Shown here: positions 2,365 to 9,044 of the stretch, piece by piece
How the letters are laid out: the number at the start of each line of letters is the position of its first letter
Position numbering within the stretch: the stretch's first letter is position 1
NCBI RefSeq assembly: GCF_009184545.1
Contig: NZ_QJOW01000004.1
Location: 1-64,000 of the forward strand
DNA from: Halosegnis rubeus
Lineage (GTDB): Archaea > Halobacteriota > Halobacteria > Halobacteriales > Haloarculaceae
Length of the DNA: 64,000 bases
Reading direction: 5' to 3'
The notes under the pieces: model-generated
Seen by the model: only the letters and a program-made list of their open reading frames with translations
The model's database searches: none
Told to the model about the DNA's origin: nothing
Program-made: the position numbers and the translations under genes

Positions 2365-2414
2365 CGTCGATTAGCCCAATAACTGTTGGCCTTCCCGGCC
2401 CCAGTGCTGGGGTG

Positions 2415-2420
2415 TTTTAT
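2415..2420 (+). promoter_or_regulatory. TATA-like element of the photolyase gene
   Basis: The sequence TTTTAT sits about 25 bp before the ATG at 2443. In haloarchaea this spacing suits a transcript that starts at or next to the start codon. It also favours ATG 2443 over the longer reading frame opening at 2386. Inferred from spacing only. Confidence 0.45.
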
Positions 2421-2442
2421 CTCGGTAGTCCCTCGAGTCAGT

Positions 2443-4068
2443 ATGGCCGACGGTGGCGACCCCCCGCTGGACACGATGCCACTCGCTCCGCTCGTTCCGT
2501 CCGTCCCGGACGAGGAGACGGGGGCCGTCGTCTGGCACCGCGACGAACTCCGGACCGCGGACCACCCCGTACTCACCGCCGCAGCCCGCAACGCCGACAC
2601 GCTCTTGCCGCTGTTCGTCTTCGACCCGCAGTTCTACGGCGACAGCGGGCTCGCCTGTGACGACCGACTTCGCTTTCTCCACGAGTCGCTTGCCGACCTC
2701 GACGAGCAGTACCGACACGCCACCGCGGGCGGGATGGGTCTCTCCTTTGCCCACGGCGACCCCGTCGAGGTGTTGGCTCGGTTTCACAACGCCGGCTGGG
2801 ACGTGTTCGCCGCGCGGGGGCCGACAGGCCGGTACGGCCGCGACCGCGACGAGCGCGCCCGCGAGGCCGCCAACGTGCTGTTCGTCTCCGGTGACGGGCT
2901 CGTTCGCGGGACCGAGGACACGCGCGACGGCTGGGCCGACCACGTCGAGTCGTGGTTCACCGACGAGACGCTGACATGGGACCCCGAGGGCGTCGAACTC
3001 GATCACGTCCCCGCGGAACTCACTCCCGAGGATATCGAGGACGCGTACGGAATCACCTCGGTGAAGACGCGCGTCCCGACCGGGGGACGGGAGGCAGGTG
3101 TCGAGACCCTGCGAGCGTTCACCGACCGCATCGACCGTTACCCGGAGAGCATCTCCGCCCCCCTCGCGGCGCGTGAGGGGACCAGCGGTCTCTCCCCGTA
3201 TCTCCGCTTCGGCTGTCTCTCCGTGCGCGAGGTGTACCAACACGTCGCCACGAACGCGACGGCCGACCGCGCCCGCGAGCTGTTCACCTCCCGGCTCTAC
3301 TGGAATCGCCACTACAAGCAGAAGCTCGAAGACTGGCCCGGCTGGCTGGACGAGGCCGCAAACCCCGTGCTCGCGGGGTTCAACGCCGACCGCTACGACC
3401 CCGAGTACGTCACCGCCTGGAAGGAGGGGAAGACGGGGTATCCGATGGTCGATGCGGCGATGCGGTGTCTCCGCGAGACGGGTTGGCTGAACTTCCGGAT
3501 GCGCGCGATGTGCGTCTCCGTCTACTTCCACATCCTCCAGCAGCCGTGGAAGCCGGGCGCGGACTGGTATCACCACCACCTCATCGACTCGGACTCGGCC
3601 ATCAACTACACGCAGTGGCAGTCTCAGTGTGGGCTCGTCGGGAAGCCGACGCTCCGATTTTACAATCCGCGCAAACAGGTGCGCGACCACGACCCCGACG
3701 GGGAGTGGATTCGCCGCTGGGTCCCCGAACTCGTCGACCTCCCCGACGACCACCTCCCCCGGCCGGAACGCACCCCTATCCACGTGCAGGAGTCGTGTGG
3801 CGTGAAGATCGGCGAGACGTACCCGTACCCGCTGGTCGAGTACGAGGCCGCCAAAGAGGAGTTCTGGCAGCGATACGACGCAATCAAACCCGAGGCCGCG
3901 GCCAGACTCGGCGACGAGGAGATTGCACGGCGCGTCTCGCTTTCCGGTGGCGTGCCGGGCGCGAAACGCATCGCCGACGAACACGGCGACGGAGCCGCCG
4001 GACGCGACCGAGACGGCGACACGCCCCGAGACAGCCCCAGACAGACCGACCTGACGCGCTTCGAGTAA
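2443..4068 (+). CDS. phr: Deoxyribodipyrimidine photolyase / cryptochrome family protein
   Basis: The 541-residue product has an N-terminal alpha/beta antenna-binding domain (VVWHRDELR, about residues 29-37) and a C-terminal helical FAD-binding domain. The signature GKTGYPMVDAAMRCLRETGW lies near residue 330. The region after it reads INYTQWQSQCGLVGKPTLR, which differs from the NWQW form of classical class I CPD photolyases, so the lesion specificity (CPD, 6-4, or a signalling cryptochrome) is open. ATG 2443 was chosen because the family core begins soon after and a TATA-like box precedes it. It heads a repair-gene neighbourhood and converges on the helicase gene at 4091. Confidence 0.9.
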   Translation: MADGGDPPLDTMPLAPLVPSVPDEETGAVVWHRDELRTADHPVLTAAARNADTLLPLFVFDPQFYGDSGLACDDRLRFLHESLADLDEQYRHATAGGMGLSFAHGDPVEVLARFHNAGWDVFAARGPTGRYGRDRDERAREAANVLFVSGDGLVRGTEDTRDGWADHVESWFTDETLTWDPEGVELDHVPAELTPEDIEDAYGITSVKTRVPTGGREAGVETLRAFTDRIDRYPESISAPLAAREGTSGLSPYLRFGCLSVREVYQHVATNATADRARELFTSRLYWNRHYKQKLEDWPGWLDEAANPVLAGFNADRYDPEYVTAWKEGKTGYPMVDAAMRCLRETGWLNFRMRAMCVSVYFHILQQPWKPGADWYHHHLIDSDSAINYTQWQSQCGLVGKPTLRFYNPRKQVRDHDPDGEWIRRWVPELVDLPDDHLPRPERTPIHVQESCGVKIGETYPYPLVEYEAAKEEFWQRYDAIKPEAAARLGDEEIARRVSLSGGVPGAKRIADEHGDGAAGRDRDGDTPRDSPRQTDLTRFE

Positions 4069-4090: not shown

Positions 4091-6784
4091 TCACGAGTAG
4101 AAGATAGAGGGTCGCCGCTCGCCGCCGTACTCGTCGTCAGGTAGGTGCGCGTCGAGGGCGTCACCCTCGCCGAGCAGGTGGTCGAACACGTCGACAGCAG
4201 AGCCACGCAAAAGCGGTTTGTTGTCGTTGCCGCAGTTGCGGTCGAAGGTGCAGGCCGGACAGCCGTTCGGTCGCCCGCAGCCGCAGTCGCGCAGGGAGTC
4301 GCGGGCGCGTTCGGCCAACGCCTCGAACTGCTCGTATATCGCTCGCGAGAAGCCCAGTCCCCCCTCTACGCCGTCGTAGATGAACCACCCCGAAGACACG
4401 TCGCCGTCGAGCGCGCGCGTCCGCTGTTCGATGACGCGCTCGGTGGCCGCGATAGTGTCCGTGCGCGTCGCTTCGTCATCGCGCGCCATGTGGGTGTCGA
4501 GCACGAGCGTCGAAAGCCCCCCGAGGTCGTTCTTGTCGACGAGCAGTTCGAGCGGCGCGGTCTTTATCATCGCGTGCTCCGCTGCGTGCAACCCTGCGAC
4601 GTAGCCCAACTGCGGCGGATGGTCGCCTTCCATCCCGGTCTCGACGCCGAACTCGCGGTACTTGTGGACGAGCGCCGTCTCGATTCGGTCGGGAACCTCC
4701 AGCCAGCAGAGCTGCGTCTGCATCTCGACGGGCCGGCGACCGGTCGGGATGTTCTGCGCGAGCGTCTCTCCGTTGCCGACATGCACCTCGTCGTAGCTCC
4801 CGTGTTCAACGATGACGGTCCCCGTGCCGTAGTGGAGGGTGTAGCCGTTCACCTCGCGGCTGCGCTCGCTGTCCGCGTCGACGACGTTCACCGTCGTCCG
4901 GGTCTGGGTGTAGTAGTCCACGTCGACGGGAGTGAGTTCGACGAACGGCTGCGGGTGGTCGTCCACGACGCGGGTCACCTCGAACTGCTGGCCGTCGTGG
5001 AGCCGAACGGCACCCTCGTGGTAGTCGCGGAACGCCCGCGACTTCGCCACCGGCTCGATATCGAGGTCGTCGGCGAGTCCCCACTCCCGTGGGTTCGCGT
5101 CGTCGGCGAGTCGGACGTGGTACTTGTCGTCGCCGGTCCCGTAGATGCTCACGTCGGCCTGCGGGCGCGGAGAGCCGACGTAGTGGACCGCCGCGTCGAG
5201 ATACCCCTCCAGCTCGCCCGCGCGCCGCAGCATCTCGACGGCTCGCTCCAGCCGGTCGCGCTCGGCGAAGCTGTCTGCGTCGTCTTCGGTCAGGGCCAAC
5301 TCCTCGGCCGCACACCGCAGATGCTGGACGAAGACGGCGTCGTTGTCGGTGTCGACGACCGCATCCTCCACGTCGGATTCGAGCAGGTAGTCTGGGTTCG
5401 CGACGACGTACTGGTCGAGGGTGCGGTGGTCTGCGACCATGACGGCGAGCGAGCGACTGGCCCCCCGCCCCGCGCGGCCGATGCGCTGCCAGAAGGACTG
5501 GCGTTGCCCCGGATACCCCAACAGCACGGTCGCGTCCAGCCCGCCGATGTCGATACCGAGTTCGAGCGCCGAAGTCGTCGCCAGCCCGGTGAGCGTCCCA
5601 GTTTTGAACTCCGTCTCGCGGGCGTGGCGCGTCCGCTTTCCCATCCCCGCGTTGTACGGTTCGACCCGCGGGCGCGCACCGTAGCTCGCGGTGTTCCCGT
5701 CGTAAAACTCGTTCACGCGCTCGACGGCGAGTTCGGTCAGCTTCCGACTCGGACAAAACAGCAGCGTCTGAATCTGGCTGCCCGTGAGGTGAGCGAAGAC
5801 GCGGGGAGCCTCGATGGAGGCGGGAACGCGCTCTGGGGCCGGCTGGTCTCCCCCCTCGTCGTCGGCTCCCTCGGGGAGCGCGTCGGTGTCGGTGTGTGCG
5901 TCCGCGGGAGTGTCCTCGCGCGACTCGTCCGGTCCCTGCTTGTTCCGCGGCGGGGGATTCCAGAGCACGAGGTCGCGTGTCCCCCGCGGAGAGCCGTCCT
6001 CGTCGACGACGGTCACGTCCTCGCCGACGAGATACGCAGAGTGTTCGCCGGGGTTGCCGACCGTCGCAGACGTGAGGGTGTACTGCGGGTCTCCGCCCCA
6101 GTAGGCGACGACGCGGCGGAGTCGCCGGAGAATCCACGCCGCGTGCATCCCCTGCACGCCGGTATGGGTGTGTGATTCGTCGATGGCGATCAGATCGAGA
6201 GCGCTGAACAGCCGGCTCCACTTGTCGTGGTGGTTGAGATAGACGCTCATCGCCTGGAAGTTGGTCAGTATCACGTCGGCCTCGGCACGGATGGTCCGGC
6301 GGTCGGCTTTGGGCGTATCGCCGTCGTAGATGCGAACCCGGATATCGAGACCAAGCGTCTCGTACAGCTCCTCGAGGTTGCGCTTCTGGTCCTTGGTGAG
6401 CGCCTTCATCGGGTAGAGCGCGAGCGCGGTCGAGGCGTCGTTCCCCTCGCTCGCGCGGGTCCCGTCGGAGTTGAGCACGCCGGCGTCGAGCAGGTTCCGC
6501 GCAATCTGGAGACCGTACACTGCGGTCTTGCCGGACGACGTGGAAGTGGCGACGGTGACGTTGTCGCCGTCGGCGAGGGAATCGAGCGCGGCGGCCTGAT
6601 GCGAGTAGGGGTCGTACGGGAGCGCGTGCGCGAGCCGCGGCCGGAGCACAGCCGCCGCCGAGACGTGGCTCCCCTCGCGGGCCGGGAGTTCACGAACCGT
6701 CACGCGCTCGCGGTCGGGGGTGAGACTCGCGCGCGGGAACGAGTCCACCAGCTCGCGGCCGGTCATGCGTGGCTCGTCGGTCAT
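4091..6784 (-). CDS. DEAD/DEAH-type helicase with C-terminal DUF1998 domain (MrfA-like)
   Basis: This 897-residue superfamily 2 helicase has Walker A TSTSSGKT near residue 80, a DESH Walker B variant near 200, and motif VI QRIGRAGRG near 434. The C-terminus has a cysteine cluster (CGCGRPNGCPACTF plus NCG, about 836-855) typical of the DUF1998 zinc module of YprA/MrfA and Hrq1 helicases. An acidic insert (about 285-320) looks like a halophilic linker. It lies 39 bp downstream of the RNase H-like nuclease gene on the same strand, presumably one operon. In Bacillus the equivalent pair repairs mitomycin C damage; a role in bulky-lesion or crosslink repair here is inferred from family and neighbours. 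Confidence 0.9.
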   Translation of the reverse strand: MTDEPRMTGRELVDSFPRASLTPDRERVTVRELPAREGSHVSAAAVLRPRLAHALPYDPYSHQAAALDSLADGDNVTVATSTSSGKTAVYGLQIARNLLDAGVLNSDGTRASEGNDASTALALYPMKALTKDQKRNLEELYETLGLDIRVRIYDGDTPKADRRTIRAEADVILTNFQAMSVYLNHHDKWSRLFSALDLIAIDESHTHTGVQGMHAAWILRRLRRVVAYWGGDPQYTLTSATVGNPGEHSAYLVGEDVTVVDEDGSPRGTRDLVLWNPPPRNKQGPDESREDTPADAHTDTDALPEGADDEGGDQPAPERVPASIEAPRVFAHLTGSQIQTLLFCPSRKLTELAVERVNEFYDGNTASYGARPRVEPYNAGMGKRTRHARETEFKTGTLTGLATTSALELGIDIGGLDATVLLGYPGQRQSFWQRIGRAGRGASRSLAVMVADHRTLDQYVVANPDYLLESDVEDAVVDTDNDAVFVQHLRCAAEELALTEDDADSFAERDRLERAVEMLRRAGELEGYLDAAVHYVGSPRPQADVSIYGTGDDKYHVRLADDANPREWGLADDLDIEPVAKSRAFRDYHEGAVRLHDGQQFEVTRVVDDHPQPFVELTPVDVDYYTQTRTTVNVVDADSERSREVNGYTLHYGTGTVIVEHGSYDEVHVGNGETLAQNIPTGRRPVEMQTQLCWLEVPDRIETALVHKYREFGVETGMEGDHPPQLGYVAGLHAAEHAMIKTAPLELLVDKNDLGGLSTLVLDTHMARDDEATRTDTIAATERVIEQRTRALDGDVSSGWFIYDGVEGGLGFSRAIYEQFEALAERARDSLRDCGCGRPNGCPACTFDRNCGNDNKPLLRGSAVDVFDHLLGEGDALDAHLPDDEYGGERRPSIFYS

Positions 6785-6823
6785 ACGGGGACGACGTGCG
6801 AGCCGGCTATCAATCGTTCGCCG

Positions 6824-8317
6824 TCAGAAGTCACCGAGTCCCGCCTGAGTGCCCCCGGAGTCGGTGGCGGTGTCGGTCGTCGCGCGGCGGTCGGCGTCGC
6901 GAATCGCGGCGTAGACGTGCCACAGGGCGCGACAGTCGTCTTCGCAGTAGCGCTCGTGGCGACCCCAGTCGACGGTGGCGGGGTCGCCGGTACGCATGAA
7001 CTGCTGGTAGGCGGCGGCGGTCTGTGCCCCCGACAGCCCGGTCTCGGCTCCCTCGAAGCCGAGGGCTGCAGCCACGTCGTCCAGCTTGTTCGTCCGGCCC
7101 GGCAGGAGCGCGTTTCCGTCGCGCACGGCCCATTTGTAGAGGTCGTAGGTCCACACGTCGGCCCACGCCTCGGCGTAGTGGGGGGCGTGCTTGTCGATGA
7201 ACCGCTCCAACTCGGGGTAGTCGAACCGGTAGCCGTTCCACGTGAGGACGGTCCGGTCGGCGTGTGTCGCGAGGAACCACTCGAGAAACGCCTCGATGAT
7301 CGTCCCCGGCTCGTCGGGGTCCTCTCGTTCCACGAACGACCGGTAGCTGTCGTCGTGCGGGTCGTAGACGCCGACTTGCCAGATGATCGTCGGTGACAGT
7401 CCGTCTGTCTCGATATCGAGACAGAGTGGCGGCCGGTCGTCGCGCGTGACGGGGAGCGTCTCGTTCGTCAAACGGAGGGGGTCGCCGGTCGCGAGCACCT
7501 CGGCGTGGGCGTGCATCCGCTCGGCGTTCGCCCTCGAGACCCCGGACACGTCCACGAGGTTTCGGACAGGCGTCTCGCGCACGTCGGTCCGGGAATCCAC
7601 CCCGCGGTCGTGGAGGCGGGTCGCCGTCGCCGCGCCGATGCCGGCGAGCGCGCGGAGACCGAACTGCGAAGTTCGCATCGGCGTCGCGGCCACGGTCCCG
7701 GCAGAGACACATCGGAGCGTGGCGAACGTCGGCGTCTCGCCGTGGCCGGGCGGAGGACCGCAGCCGTACACCGGAACCGTCGTCCCGTCGAGCGTCCAGT
7801 CGTGGTGGTATCCCGCCGGAAGTTCGCCGGCGAGTACGGTAATCGGCGCATCCGTCGCGCGCTGGAGTCGCGTCAGTTCGTCGCTCGCAGTGAGGGTCGC
7901 CGAGAGGCTCGTCGCGTCCGTCTCAACGTCGAGTCCCGGGACGACGAGGTGCGTTCGCTCGCTGGCGGGCCGTCGCTCACCCGCCTCGAAGGCGGCCGCG
8001 AGGTCGTCGAGGACGGCGGAGGACTGTACCGTGAGTACGTCGAGTTCGGGCGCGGCGTCGGGGGCGACTGCAGCGAGTGCGTCGTCCACGCGGGCGTGCC
8101 GGACGACCGAGTCGCCGTCGCTTCCCAACTGCGGGTGGACGACGGGAACGGAGAGCGAATCGCGGACGGTCGCGTAGGCGCGCGGCTCGGGCGTCGGGTC
8201 GGAGAGCCAGACGCCGTCGGGGTCGCCGTAGGCGACGGCGTCGGCGAGCGCCGGCGCGGCGAGCTCACGCACCGCTCGTGCCGGCAGCGACAACAGCGTC
8301 AGGGGCTCCTCGCTCAC
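6824..8317 (-). CDS. RNase H-like 3'-5' exonuclease with helix-hairpin-helix (MrfB/YprB-like)
   Basis: The 497-residue protein starts at GTG 8317. A helix-hairpin-helix region (LAGIGAATATRLHDRGV to VSGVSRANAERM) lies at about 225-265. The C-terminal half is a DEDD-type exonuclease: LCLDIETDGL near 299, TWNGYRFDYPEL, and YCEDDCRALWHVY near 457, giving all four acidic positions. This is the domain found in YprB/MrfB. The N-terminal 200 residues are unassigned. The gene precedes the MrfA-like helicase, so both are probably co-transcribed from upstream of 8317. A nuclease acting on strands opened by the helicase is the expected role; substrate is not shown by sequence. Confidence 0.85.
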   Translation of the reverse strand: MSEEPLTLLSLPARAVRELAAPALADAVAYGDPDGVWLSDPTPEPRAYATVRDSLSVPVVHPQLGSDGDSVVRHARVDDALAAVAPDAAPELDVLTVQSSAVLDDLAAAFEAGERRPASERTHLVVPGLDVETDATSLSATLTASDELTRLQRATDAPITVLAGELPAGYHHDWTLDGTTVPVYGCGPPPGHGETPTFATLRCVSAGTVAATPMRTSQFGLRALAGIGAATATRLHDRGVDSRTDVRETPVRNLVDVSGVSRANAERMHAHAEVLATGDPLRLTNETLPVTRDDRPPLCLDIETDGLSPTIIWQVGVYDPHDDSYRSFVEREDPDEPGTIIEAFLEWFLATHADRTVLTWNGYRFDYPELERFIDKHAPHYAEAWADVWTYDLYKWAVRDGNALLPGRTNKLDDVAAALGFEGAETGLSGAQTAAAYQQFMRTGDPATVDWGRHERYCEDDCRALWHVYAAIRDADRRATTDTATDSGGTQAGLGDF

Positions 8318-8489
8318 GGGCGTCGCTACGCGAGTCGGGCGAAAAGAGCTTCCGGCGTGAACTCAGTAGCCGGCTCTCCGTGGACGGTCTCGCCGTCGGC
8401 GTTCCGTGAATCAGGTCCCGGACGTACAGCTCTCGGTCAACACCGAACCGGCGGTCGTAGCACCATTCGTTCAGTTCGTCGTACCACAC
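8265..8489 (-). other. Possible small or remnant ORF upstream of the nuclease gene
   Basis: A 74-codon minus-strand frame opens with a GTG at 8489. Its first half (MWYDELNEWCYDRR, then ELYVRDLIHG) has protein-like composition and good haloarchaeal codon use. The second half overlaps the nuclease start region and looks random. It could be a short conserved gene, an N-terminal remnant, or chance. I do not recognise a family. The 8318-8558 gap otherwise holds only the likely divergent promoters. Confidence 0.25.
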
Positions 8490-8558
8490 CGCCGTCGCGC
8501 AGCGACCCCTCGGGGGTCGGCTCCCAAGCGTTTAGCAGGTGTCGCCCGAAGCCGGGGC

Positions 8559-9044
8559 GTGAGTCGACTCGTCGCGACAGTCACGTTCGGTCGGCGGCCG
8601 GCCATCGGATCCGGCATCGAGCCGGTCGCGGTCGCGCACGGCTACGCCGAGCCGATGGCGCGGTTCCTCGGCTACAACCTCACCGACGACGGGACCCTCG
8701 ACCGCGTCCCGGGTGCGTACGCGCCCGTGCTCGGCGACCGACCCTCGGTCGTGACGGACCTGTTGCTCGCGCTCGCGCCAGAGCTGTCGAGCATCGCAGA
8801 CCGCATCGGGACGCTCGACACCAAATCGCGCGTGAACTACGGCGTCGACTTCCGCGAGAAGGCGTTCGACTCCGCTGTCGGCTGGGGGTCGGACGGCTAC
8901 GGCCGCCACTTCGAAGCGCGCTCGCAGTTGGAGTCACATCCCATCGACGGGGCCGTCGCGGTCGCCTGCTACGGCAGCGGCGAACTGTGTCGAGCAATCG
9001 AGGCGAACCTTGACCGACTAGACGTCGACGCGCTCCGCGGGTAA
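8559..9044 (+). CDS. Hypothetical protein
   Basis: About 161 codons from a GTG at 8559 (an ATG at 8655 would give 129 residues). From residue 33 onward codon use is strongly haloarchaeal and the sequence is protein-like (MARFLGYNLTDDGTLDRV, then YGVDFREKAFDSAVGWGSDG), so I take it as real. No motif, signal peptide or membrane segment is evident and I recognise no family. The 3' end overlaps the antisense fragment of a response regulator (9018-9146), meaning the two were probably brought together by rearrangement. Function unknown. Confidence 0.5.
   Translation: MSRLVATVTFGRRPAIGSGIEPVAVAHGYAEPMARFLGYNLTDDGTLDRVPGAYAPVLGDRPSVVTDLLLALAPELSSIADRIGTLDTKSRVNYGVDFREKAFDSAVGWGSDGYGRHFEARSQLESHPIDGAVAVACYGSGELCRAIEANLDRLDVDALRG

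What the first reader, a model, noticed from the sequence alone, without database searches (positions are those of the whole stretch)
4091..8317. Haloarchaeal MrfA/MrfB-like helicase-nuclease pair next to other repair genes
The DUF1998 helicase and the YprB-type nuclease are adjacent in apparent operon order nuclease then helicase. In Bacillus these two act together in mitomycin C repair. Here they lie beside a photolyase gene and 0.9 kb from a PIP-box Y-family polymerase. The nuclease additionally has an HhH region. A lesion-repair neighbourhood independent of UvrABC is a reasonable hypothesis.
Basis: partly seen in the sequence, partly recalled or inferred. Interest (0 to 1): 0.55.

Follow-up and report, generated by a model that had tools for sequence, protein, structure and literature searches.

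The report
Clamp-tagged helicase-exonuclease pair in haloarchaea
Two neighbouring genes encode a DNA-unwinding enzyme and a DNA-trimming enzyme that travel together in many salt-loving archaea; the trimming enzyme ends in a short tag that should dock it on the sliding clamp PCNA, which suggests a clamp-guided relative of the bacterial MrfAB repair pathway.

Summary
The pair is real. The helicase (4091-6784, minus strand) is a YprA/MrfA-family enzyme. The gene upstream (6824-8317) encodes a PF13482 exonuclease. In 242 haloarchaeal genomes, 101 of the 109 nuclease matches I compared, including every one with E <= 1.9e-43, have the helicase directly downstream on the same strand (93 genomes). Their divergence is strongly correlated (r = 0.96).

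The nuclease is not a standard MrfB. Its architecture is a metallophosphoesterase-fold domain without conserved metal ligands, then HhH, then a PolB-like DEDDy exonuclease, then a disordered tail. The tail ends in a PCNA-interacting (PIP) box in 80 of 80 proteins, although the linker before it is barely conserved. Shorter DEDDh relatives in other archaea of the phylum lack it (0 of 7). I found no report of this tag.

The 'repair neighbourhood' is weak: PolY recurs in 1 of 79 other loci (same genus) and photolyase in 2 of 79. UvrABC is complete in this genome, so UvrABC independence is untested.

Best reading: a PCNA-tethered MrfAB-like helicase-exonuclease. PCNA binding, lesion specificity and any link to the Argonaute genes beside some copies remain inferred.

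The parts
6824..8317 (-). Exonuclease gene, first of the pair: degenerate metallophosphoesterase-fold domain, HhH, DEDDy exonuclease, PIP box
   Evidence: Pfam RNase_H_2 109.8 bits and HHH_5 29.3 bits; AF2 model pLDDT 91.9; invariant D301, E303, D366, Y457, D461 in 67 aligned sequences
7664..8317 (-). N-terminal domain, residues 1-218: metallophosphoesterase fold without conserved metal ligands
   Evidence: Model pLDDT 93.1; six best Foldseek matches all metallophosphoesterases, best E 2.3e-4; Rv0805 Z 11.1, rmsd 3.9, 184 aligned; only G185 invariant
7487..7660 (-). HhH region, about residues 220-277
   Evidence: HHH_5 in 67 of 67 aligned members; helices in the model
6872..7438 (-). 3'-5' exonuclease domain, residues 294-482, DEDDy
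   Evidence: VIA-align Z 16.2 to archaeal PolB 5mdn, rmsd 2.5, 163 aligned; Y457 and D461 in 80 of 80
6827..6847 (-). C-terminal PIP box QAGLGDF, residues 491-497
   Evidence: Q491, L494, acidic 496 and aromatic 497 each 80 of 80, linker residues 476-490 at most 38 of 80; motif at the C-terminus in 80 of 80 nucleases and 0 of 80 helicases
4091..6784 (-). Helicase gene, second of the pair: YprA/MrfA family, SF2
   Evidence: phmmer E 1.6e-93 to MrfA 6znp; MZB 59.5 bits; DE.H box 80 of 80 and MZB CxC..CxxC 80 of 80
4247..4582 (-). MZB zinc-binding domain of the helicase
   Evidence: PF09369 62.8 bits, the only match in this genome
4094..4117 (-). Conserved helicase C-terminal tail RRPSIFYS
   Evidence: RPx[LVIA][FY][FY]x at the C-terminus in 40 of 40 group-A helicases

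Best explanation
The two genes encode one functional unit, a helicase-exonuclease machine of the YprAB/MrfAB kind that haloarchaea have tied to the sliding clamp. Proposed mechanism: the nuclease's disordered tail docks its C-terminal PIP box on PCNA and holds the HhH and exonuclease domains at a nick or stalled primer end. The MrfA-type helicase opens the duplex, translocating 3'-5' by analogy. The DEDDy exonuclease digests the damaged strand from its 3' end. The gap is then filled by a PCNA-bound polymerase. The metallophosphoesterase-fold N-terminal domain, which lacks conserved metal ligands, is probably a structural or binding module. Shown: gene identity, strict pairing, correlated divergence, catalytic residues, predicted fold, and conservation of the PIP box. 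Inferred: PCNA binding, helicase polarity, physical contact between the two proteins, and that lesions (MMC-type adducts or others) are the substrate.
For: Pairing: 101 of 109 nuclease rows compared (all with E <= 1.9e-43) have the helicase downstream on the same strand, in 93 of 242 genomes. In a second set of 82 loci (80 named genome contigs plus 2 plasmid records; some genomes overlap the first set), 81 have the helicase adjacent, and 69 of the 81 junctions are at most 10 bp apart or overlap (some overlaps come from long mechanical ORFs). Nuclease and helicase distances correlate at r = 0.964; the best of 1000 permutations is 0.168. Helicase: MrfA is by far the best PDB match, 317 bits against 65 for the next. 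Exonuclease: D301, E303, D366, Y457, D461 invariant in 67 sequences; fold as PolB proofreading domains. PIP box: 80 of 80 and 81 of 82 (the exception, L194, is a truncated ORF), against 16 of 1786 other ORFs of 200 aa or more in the same loci with the looser pattern (96 of 1866, minus the 80). A PCNA homologue is in the genome (71.1 bits, below the curated cut-off of 99.1; only 2 of the 4 archaeal control genomes that ring clear that cut-off). Precedent: MrfAB in B. subtilis repairs MMC damage (PMC11194089, abstract and passages); in Haloferax, PCNA binding by NreA is needed for its role in MMC repair with UvrABC (PMC7776575, passages).
Against: No binding or phenotype data. The haloarchaeal PIP box has one terminal aromatic, not two, although haloarchaeal PolY also deviates at that last position (PMC2737543, passages). 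The pair is patchy (93 of 242 genomes) and often on plasmids (48 plasmid records match the nuclease, some of them a different phosphoesterase fusion), which is unusual for core repair. In some lineages it sits beside Argonaute genes. The repair-gene neighbourhood in this window is not conserved.
Confidence: 0.6

Rival explanations
1. The pair is mainly an anti-virus or anti-plasmid DNA degradation module, sometimes acting with Argonaute, and the PIP box directs it to actively replicating DNA.
For: pAgo genes flank the pair more often than any other Pfam family: 5 of 100 flanking ORFs sampled at A1 and B loci, one arrangement being pAgo 9 bp upstream on the same strand (L041, L042, L045). Piwi rang in only 29 of 242 genomes (an undercount, since G224, G095 and G151 were missed). 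The pAgos at L048 and L104 are 62% identical although their nucleases are 34% identical, so the association arose more than once. Patchy distribution and plasmid location. Other YprA families serve defence (PMC12458937, section 5).
Against: A large group (many of L052-L078) has a shared chromosomal context with thyA-, folA- and purD-like ORFs (named by me from the sequences, not scanned), as expected for a housekeeping gene. The nuclease matches no PADLOC model, and the helicase matches defence helicases only over the shared core, at most 121 bits. No match in 50,697 phage records. This genome has no Piwi match. The preprint puts MrfB-associated helicases in its repair branch.
Confidence: 0.22
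2. It is an ordinary MrfAB orthologue and the PIP box is incidental.
For: Same helicase family and same broad exonuclease family; both B. subtilis and Haloferax volcanii ring for MZB and RNase_H_2.
Against: The PIP positions are 80 of 80 while the linker is not conserved, so the motif is under selection. A catalytic Tyr replaces the MrfB His, and an extra MPE-fold domain is present. MrfB itself was only a weak profile hit (8un9, E 0.053).
Confidence: 0.1
3. The pair belongs to a local repair island with photolyase and PolY, acting as one pathway.
For: They are adjacent in the window; the photolyase and PolY tails also carry PIP-like motifs.
Against: Of 79 other loci only 1 keeps PolY (same genus) and 2 a photolyase. 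The flanking genes are convergent or divergent, not co-directional.
Confidence: 0.04

Closest known systems
Bacillus subtilis MrfA/YprA helicase (6znp)
   Same: Full helicase core, DE.H box, MZB zinc domain; E 1.6e-93; the paired gene encodes a 3'-5' exonuclease-fold protein
   Different: Group-A haloarchaeal helicases carry a conserved C-terminal tail RPx[LVIA][FY][FY] (40 of 40); the gene is second in its operon, whereas the Bacillus operon is named mrfAB
Bacillus subtilis MrfB/YprB exonuclease (8un9)
   Same: DnaQ/RNase H-fold DEDD exonuclease next to a YprA helicase; the fifth catalytic residue lies four residues before the last Asp in both
   Different: DEDDy not DEDDh; HhH plus an extra MPE-fold N-terminal domain; nothing folded after the exonuclease domain, so no TPR region; C-terminal PIP box; only weak profile similarity, E 0.053
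Short DEDDh HhH-exonucleases beside YprA in other archaea of the phylum (L138, L139, L141, L142, L143)
   Same: HhH plus exonuclease, nuclease before helicase in 5 of 5; adjacent YprA match in 5 of 7 loci read
   Different: 335-386 aa, HN[RK]xD motif in 7 of 7, PIP box in 0 of 7, too short for the MPE-fold domain
TM0106 family (TIGR03491)
   Same: C-terminal half (HhH plus exonuclease) aligns, 60.6 bits
   Different: Below the curated cut-off of 97.45; the N-terminal half does not match
NucS and NreA, archaeal proteins with C-terminal PIP motifs
   Same: C-terminal PIP motif on a DNA-processing or repair protein (PMC4929162, part 1 of 3 of the text)
   Different: Other protein families; not paired with a helicase
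ARMADA, BRIGADE, Druantia, DISARM, Dpd (YprA-based defence)
   Same: Related SF2 helicase core
   Different: Their companion genes as described in PMC12458937 (methyltransferases, PLD nucleases, BrxHII) are not what pairs here; only core-level PADLOC scores

Membership tests
YprA/MrfA helicases | SF2 core with MZB (DUF1998) zinc domain | tested here: met
   Pfam DEAD, Helicase_C, MZB all over cut-off; cysteines 80 of 80
YprA/MrfA helicases | Closest solved relative is MrfA rather than RecQ4, Lhr or a defence helicase | tested here: met
   6znp 317 bits, next 65 bits
YprA/MrfA helicases | 3'-5' translocation and an MMC-repair phenotype | not testable with these tools
   Needs protein and deletion strains
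MrfB/YprB | DnaQ-like DEDD 3'-5' exonuclease fold | tested here: met
   D301, E303, D366, D461 invariant; PolB exonuclease fold Z 16.2
MrfB/YprB | DEDDh: catalytic His four residues before the last Asp (H258-D262 in MrfB, PMC11194089) | tested here: not met
   Tyr at this place in 80 of 80
MrfB/YprB | C-terminal TPR domain | tested here: not met
   The model ends its fold at about residue 480 and the tail is disordered
MrfB/YprB | Sequence similarity to MrfB | tested here: inconclusive
   8un9 E 0.053 with the family profile, part of the domain only
PCNA clients with PIP box | Q-x-x-h-x-x-a(a) motif at an extreme terminus on a flexible tail | tested here: met
   80 of 80, with one terminal aromatic; tail pLDDT under 50
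PCNA clients with PIP box | Binds PCNA | not testable with these tools
   No complex prediction or binding assay was available
Metallophosphoesterase (N-terminal domain) | Fold | tested here: met
   Foldseek top 6 and VIA-align top rows, Z up to 11.1
Metallophosphoesterase (N-terminal domain) | Conserved Asp/His/Asn metal ligands | tested here: not met
   No His or Asn among columns of 75% or more conservation in the domain; only D26 and D34 are acidic
Known YprA-based defence systems | Specific full-length match and the system's companion genes | tested here: not met
   Only helicase-core matches, nuclease no match; flanking genes varied

The most novel reading that the evidence does not exclude
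Haloarchaea use a PCNA-tethered helicase-exonuclease (pseudo-phosphoesterase, HhH, DEDDy exonuclease, PIP box, plus a YprA helicase) as a general strand-processing machine. In some lineages it is coupled to Argonaute, the way RecBCD-type processing supports Argonautes in bacteria (recalled), feeding guides or finishing the degradation of invading DNA. One clamp-directed engine would then serve both repair and defence.
Probability: 0.15. Interest if true: 0.82.

Novelty: new variant of a known kind. Interest (0 to 1): 0.5.

Why it matters
MrfAB was found in a bacterium, and how its nuclease is brought to damage is not established as far as I know. A haloarchaeal version whose nuclease ends in an invariant clamp-binding motif gives a simple, testable recruitment mechanism and adds a candidate to the poorly mapped set of archaeal PCNA clients. 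The genes are in Halobacterium salinarum R1 (OE_RS12870/OE_RS12865 on plasmid PHS3), so the idea can be tested in a laboratory strain. The repeated placement beside Argonaute genes offers a lead on how archaeal Argonautes get helicase and nuclease help.

Tried and rejected
Repair island with photolyase and PolY: rejected, because the neighbours do not recur.

In-frame TAG codons in a related nuclease looked like recoding. Reading the frames showed that TAG is the ordinary stop and the search frame ran past it.

Known defence system: PADLOC gave no nuclease match and only core-level helicase matches. Phage records: no match.

Sequence evidence that the N-terminal domain derives from the phosphoesterase of the MPE-HhH-exonuclease fusion: profile comparison of the N-terminal domain alone failed (E 0.14). 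Only the region from profile column 201 onward aligned, E 1.2e-24. The MPE assignment therefore rests on predicted structure. In the whole-model second look only the exonuclease region was covered and MrfB was not listed, which says nothing either way.

Literature: one search on MrfB with PCNA returned 0 papers. MrfA with Hrq1 and archaea returned 0. Two broader searches (listings only) and the archaeal-immunity paper PMC12988326 (passages; 0 occurrences of YprA, MrfA or PCNA) gave nothing on this pair. Most subscription papers are not held, so absence in print is not established. Only part 1 of 3 of PMC4929162 was read.

A slip that was put right: one search cut the minus-strand short nucleases at wrong offsets; one search repeats that check correctly, with the same result (HN[RK]xD 7 of 7, PIP 0 of 7).

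Full report
Observation. The window (contig C9 of a 2.66 Mb genome) carries a minus-strand gene pair: a 497-aa nuclease (6824-8317) and, 39 bp downstream, an 897-aa helicase (4091-6784). Pfam finds RNase_H_2 and HHH_5 in the first, and DEAD, Helicase_C, MZB and WHD_HRQ1 in the second, all over the curated cut-offs. The helicase's best solved relative is MrfA/YprA of B. subtilis (E 1.6e-93, 317 bits; the next best match has 65 bits).

Strict pairing. The two proteins were searched separately in the same 242 haloarchaeal genomes. Of 109 nuclease rows compared, 101 have a helicase row downstream on the same strand, including every row with E of 1.9e-43 or better, in 93 genomes. The other 8 rows (E 1.7e-20 to 7.5e-12) are weaker relatives, five of which, read in full (L119-L123), are the phosphoesterase fusion described below. 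In a second set of 82 loci from named genomes and plasmids, 81 have the helicase next door; in the exception (L204) the held stretch ends 1.4 kb downstream. The two sets overlap in genomes. Pairwise divergence of nuclease and helicase across 80 loci correlates at r = 0.964, with at most 0.168 in 1000 permutations. The pair is inherited as a unit, yet it is patchy: a same-genus genome (G131) gave no nuclease match. It also occurs on plasmids, including PHS3 of Halobacterium salinarum R1.

Anatomy of the nuclease. AlphaFold2 with 67 sequences gives pLDDT 91.9 and pTM 0.87, and only the last 16 residues are disordered. Residues 294-482 match 3'-5' exonuclease domains of family-B polymerases (5mdn, Z 16.2, rmsd 2.5, 163 aligned). 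The invariant residues are D301, E303, D366, Y457 and D461, with Y457 and D461 in 80 of 80, so this is a DEDDy enzyme. MrfB is DEDDh with His258 four residues before Asp262 and has a C-terminal TPR domain (PMC11194089, abstract and passages). Here Tyr takes the His position and nothing folded follows the exonuclease domain. Residues 1-218, modelled alone (pLDDT 93.1), match metallophosphoesterases: all six Foldseek matches under 0.001 and the top VIA-align rows (Rv0805, Z 11.1, rmsd 3.9, 184 aligned). No His or Asn is conserved at 75% or more in this domain, so it is probably inactive.

The clamp motif. All 80 nucleases (79 fetched loci plus the window) end with Q-x-x-L-x-x-[FWY], the motif starting 7-9 residues from the C-terminus; none of the 80 helicases does. 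Among the other ORFs of 200 aa or more in the same loci the looser pattern occurs in 16 of 1786. In the alignment Q491, L494, an acid at 496 and an aromatic at 497 are 80 of 80, whereas no linker column from 476 to 490 exceeds 38 of 80. These sequences are related, so 80 is not 80 independent trials; the contrast between motif and linker is the stronger argument. The PIP motif is typically QXXhXXaa (PMC4929162, part 1). Haloarchaeal PolY also lacks the last aromatic (PMC2737543, passages). PCNA binding is inferred.

Where the variant came from. In 196 genomes drawn from the phylum, full-length matches appear only in the haloarchaeal genomes sampled. Elsewhere there are shorter HhH-exonucleases. 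Seven read in full are 335-386 aa with HN[RK]xD (DEDDh) in 7 of 7, no PIP box in 7 of 7, and a YprA match beside them in 5 of 7 loci, nuclease first in 5 of 5. The simplest inference is an older archaeal MrfB-like pair, to which haloarchaea added a phosphoesterase-fold domain and a PIP box and in which the catalytic His became Tyr. The direction of change is inferred; no rooted tree was made.

Neighbourhood. UvrA (1351 bits), UvrB (989) and UvrC (441) are present in this genome; independence from them is untested. A large group (within L052-L078) shares chromosomal flanking ORFs that look like thyA, folA and purD (named by eye). Among 100 flanking ORFs of other loci the most frequent Pfam family is Piwi (5). 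A long pAgo lies 9 bp upstream on the same strand in L041, L042 and L045 (their pAgos 91-96% identical, so probably one event). A second pAgo type (62% identical between L048 and L104) accompanies two pair lineages whose nucleases are 34% identical. L043 has a broken third one. Piwi rang in 29 of 242 genomes, a lower bound because pAgos seen in three fetched loci were missed. This suggests repeated placement near Argonaute, which keeps a defence role open.

Mechanism and verdict. The best-supported reading is a PCNA-tethered MrfAB-like helicase-exonuclease: the tail docks on the clamp, the helicase opens the strand, the exonuclease removes it 3' to 5', and a clamp-bound polymerase refills the gap. 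Lesion type is unknown; MMC-type adducts are suggested only by homology and by the PCNA-dependent MMC role of NreA in Haloferax (PMC7776575, passages). The pairing of YprA with YprB-like nucleases is already published (PMC12458937, passages and section 5). The PIP box, the DEDDy site and the extra domain were not found in print with the searches listed. Novelty: a new variant of a known kind.

Noticed in passing
L119 (G000:C1, about 156,750-158,240, minus) and L120-L123: A second nuclease in the same genome fuses a metallophosphoesterase with GD, GN and GHCH motifs (by eye) to the same HhH-DEDDy exonuclease core; nearly identical copies are in four other genomes on small contigs, so it looks mobile. 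It lacks the C-terminal PIP box.
   Followed up: partly
L041, L042, L045, L048, L043, L104: Argonaute (Piwi) genes lie beside the helicase-nuclease pair in several lineages, once 9 bp upstream on the same strand.
   Followed up: partly
2386-4068 (C-terminus) and L152, L153, L155, L118: The photolyase next to the pair ends in a PIP-like QTDLTRFE; related photolyases end in QSSLARFE, QASLDDF or QTSIQRFE, while one relative (L154) and four other paralogues (L156-L159) do not. Possibly a clamp-bound photolyase.
   Followed up: partly
4094-4117 and group-A loci: Group-A helicases end in a conserved RPx[LVIA][FY][FY]x tail (40 of 40) after a variable stretch; a likely docking peptide of unknown partner.
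   Followed up: no
L241 (plasmid pAArc1-01), 2785-17065; also L084, L087: A plasmid cluster with a PLD-like protein, two YprA helicases, the nuclease, an unknown protein, an SMC/LmuB-like ATPase and an integrase; it may be an uncharacterised defence or plasmid-maintenance cassette.
   Followed up: partly
L240 11567-12211 (OE_RS12860): In H. salinarum R1 a third, small RNase H-like exonuclease gene follows the helicase directly.
   Followed up: no
8406-9044, plus strand: Small gene between the nuclease and PolY, no Pfam or NCBIfam match; among the loci fetched, found only in the same-genus genome.
   Followed up: no
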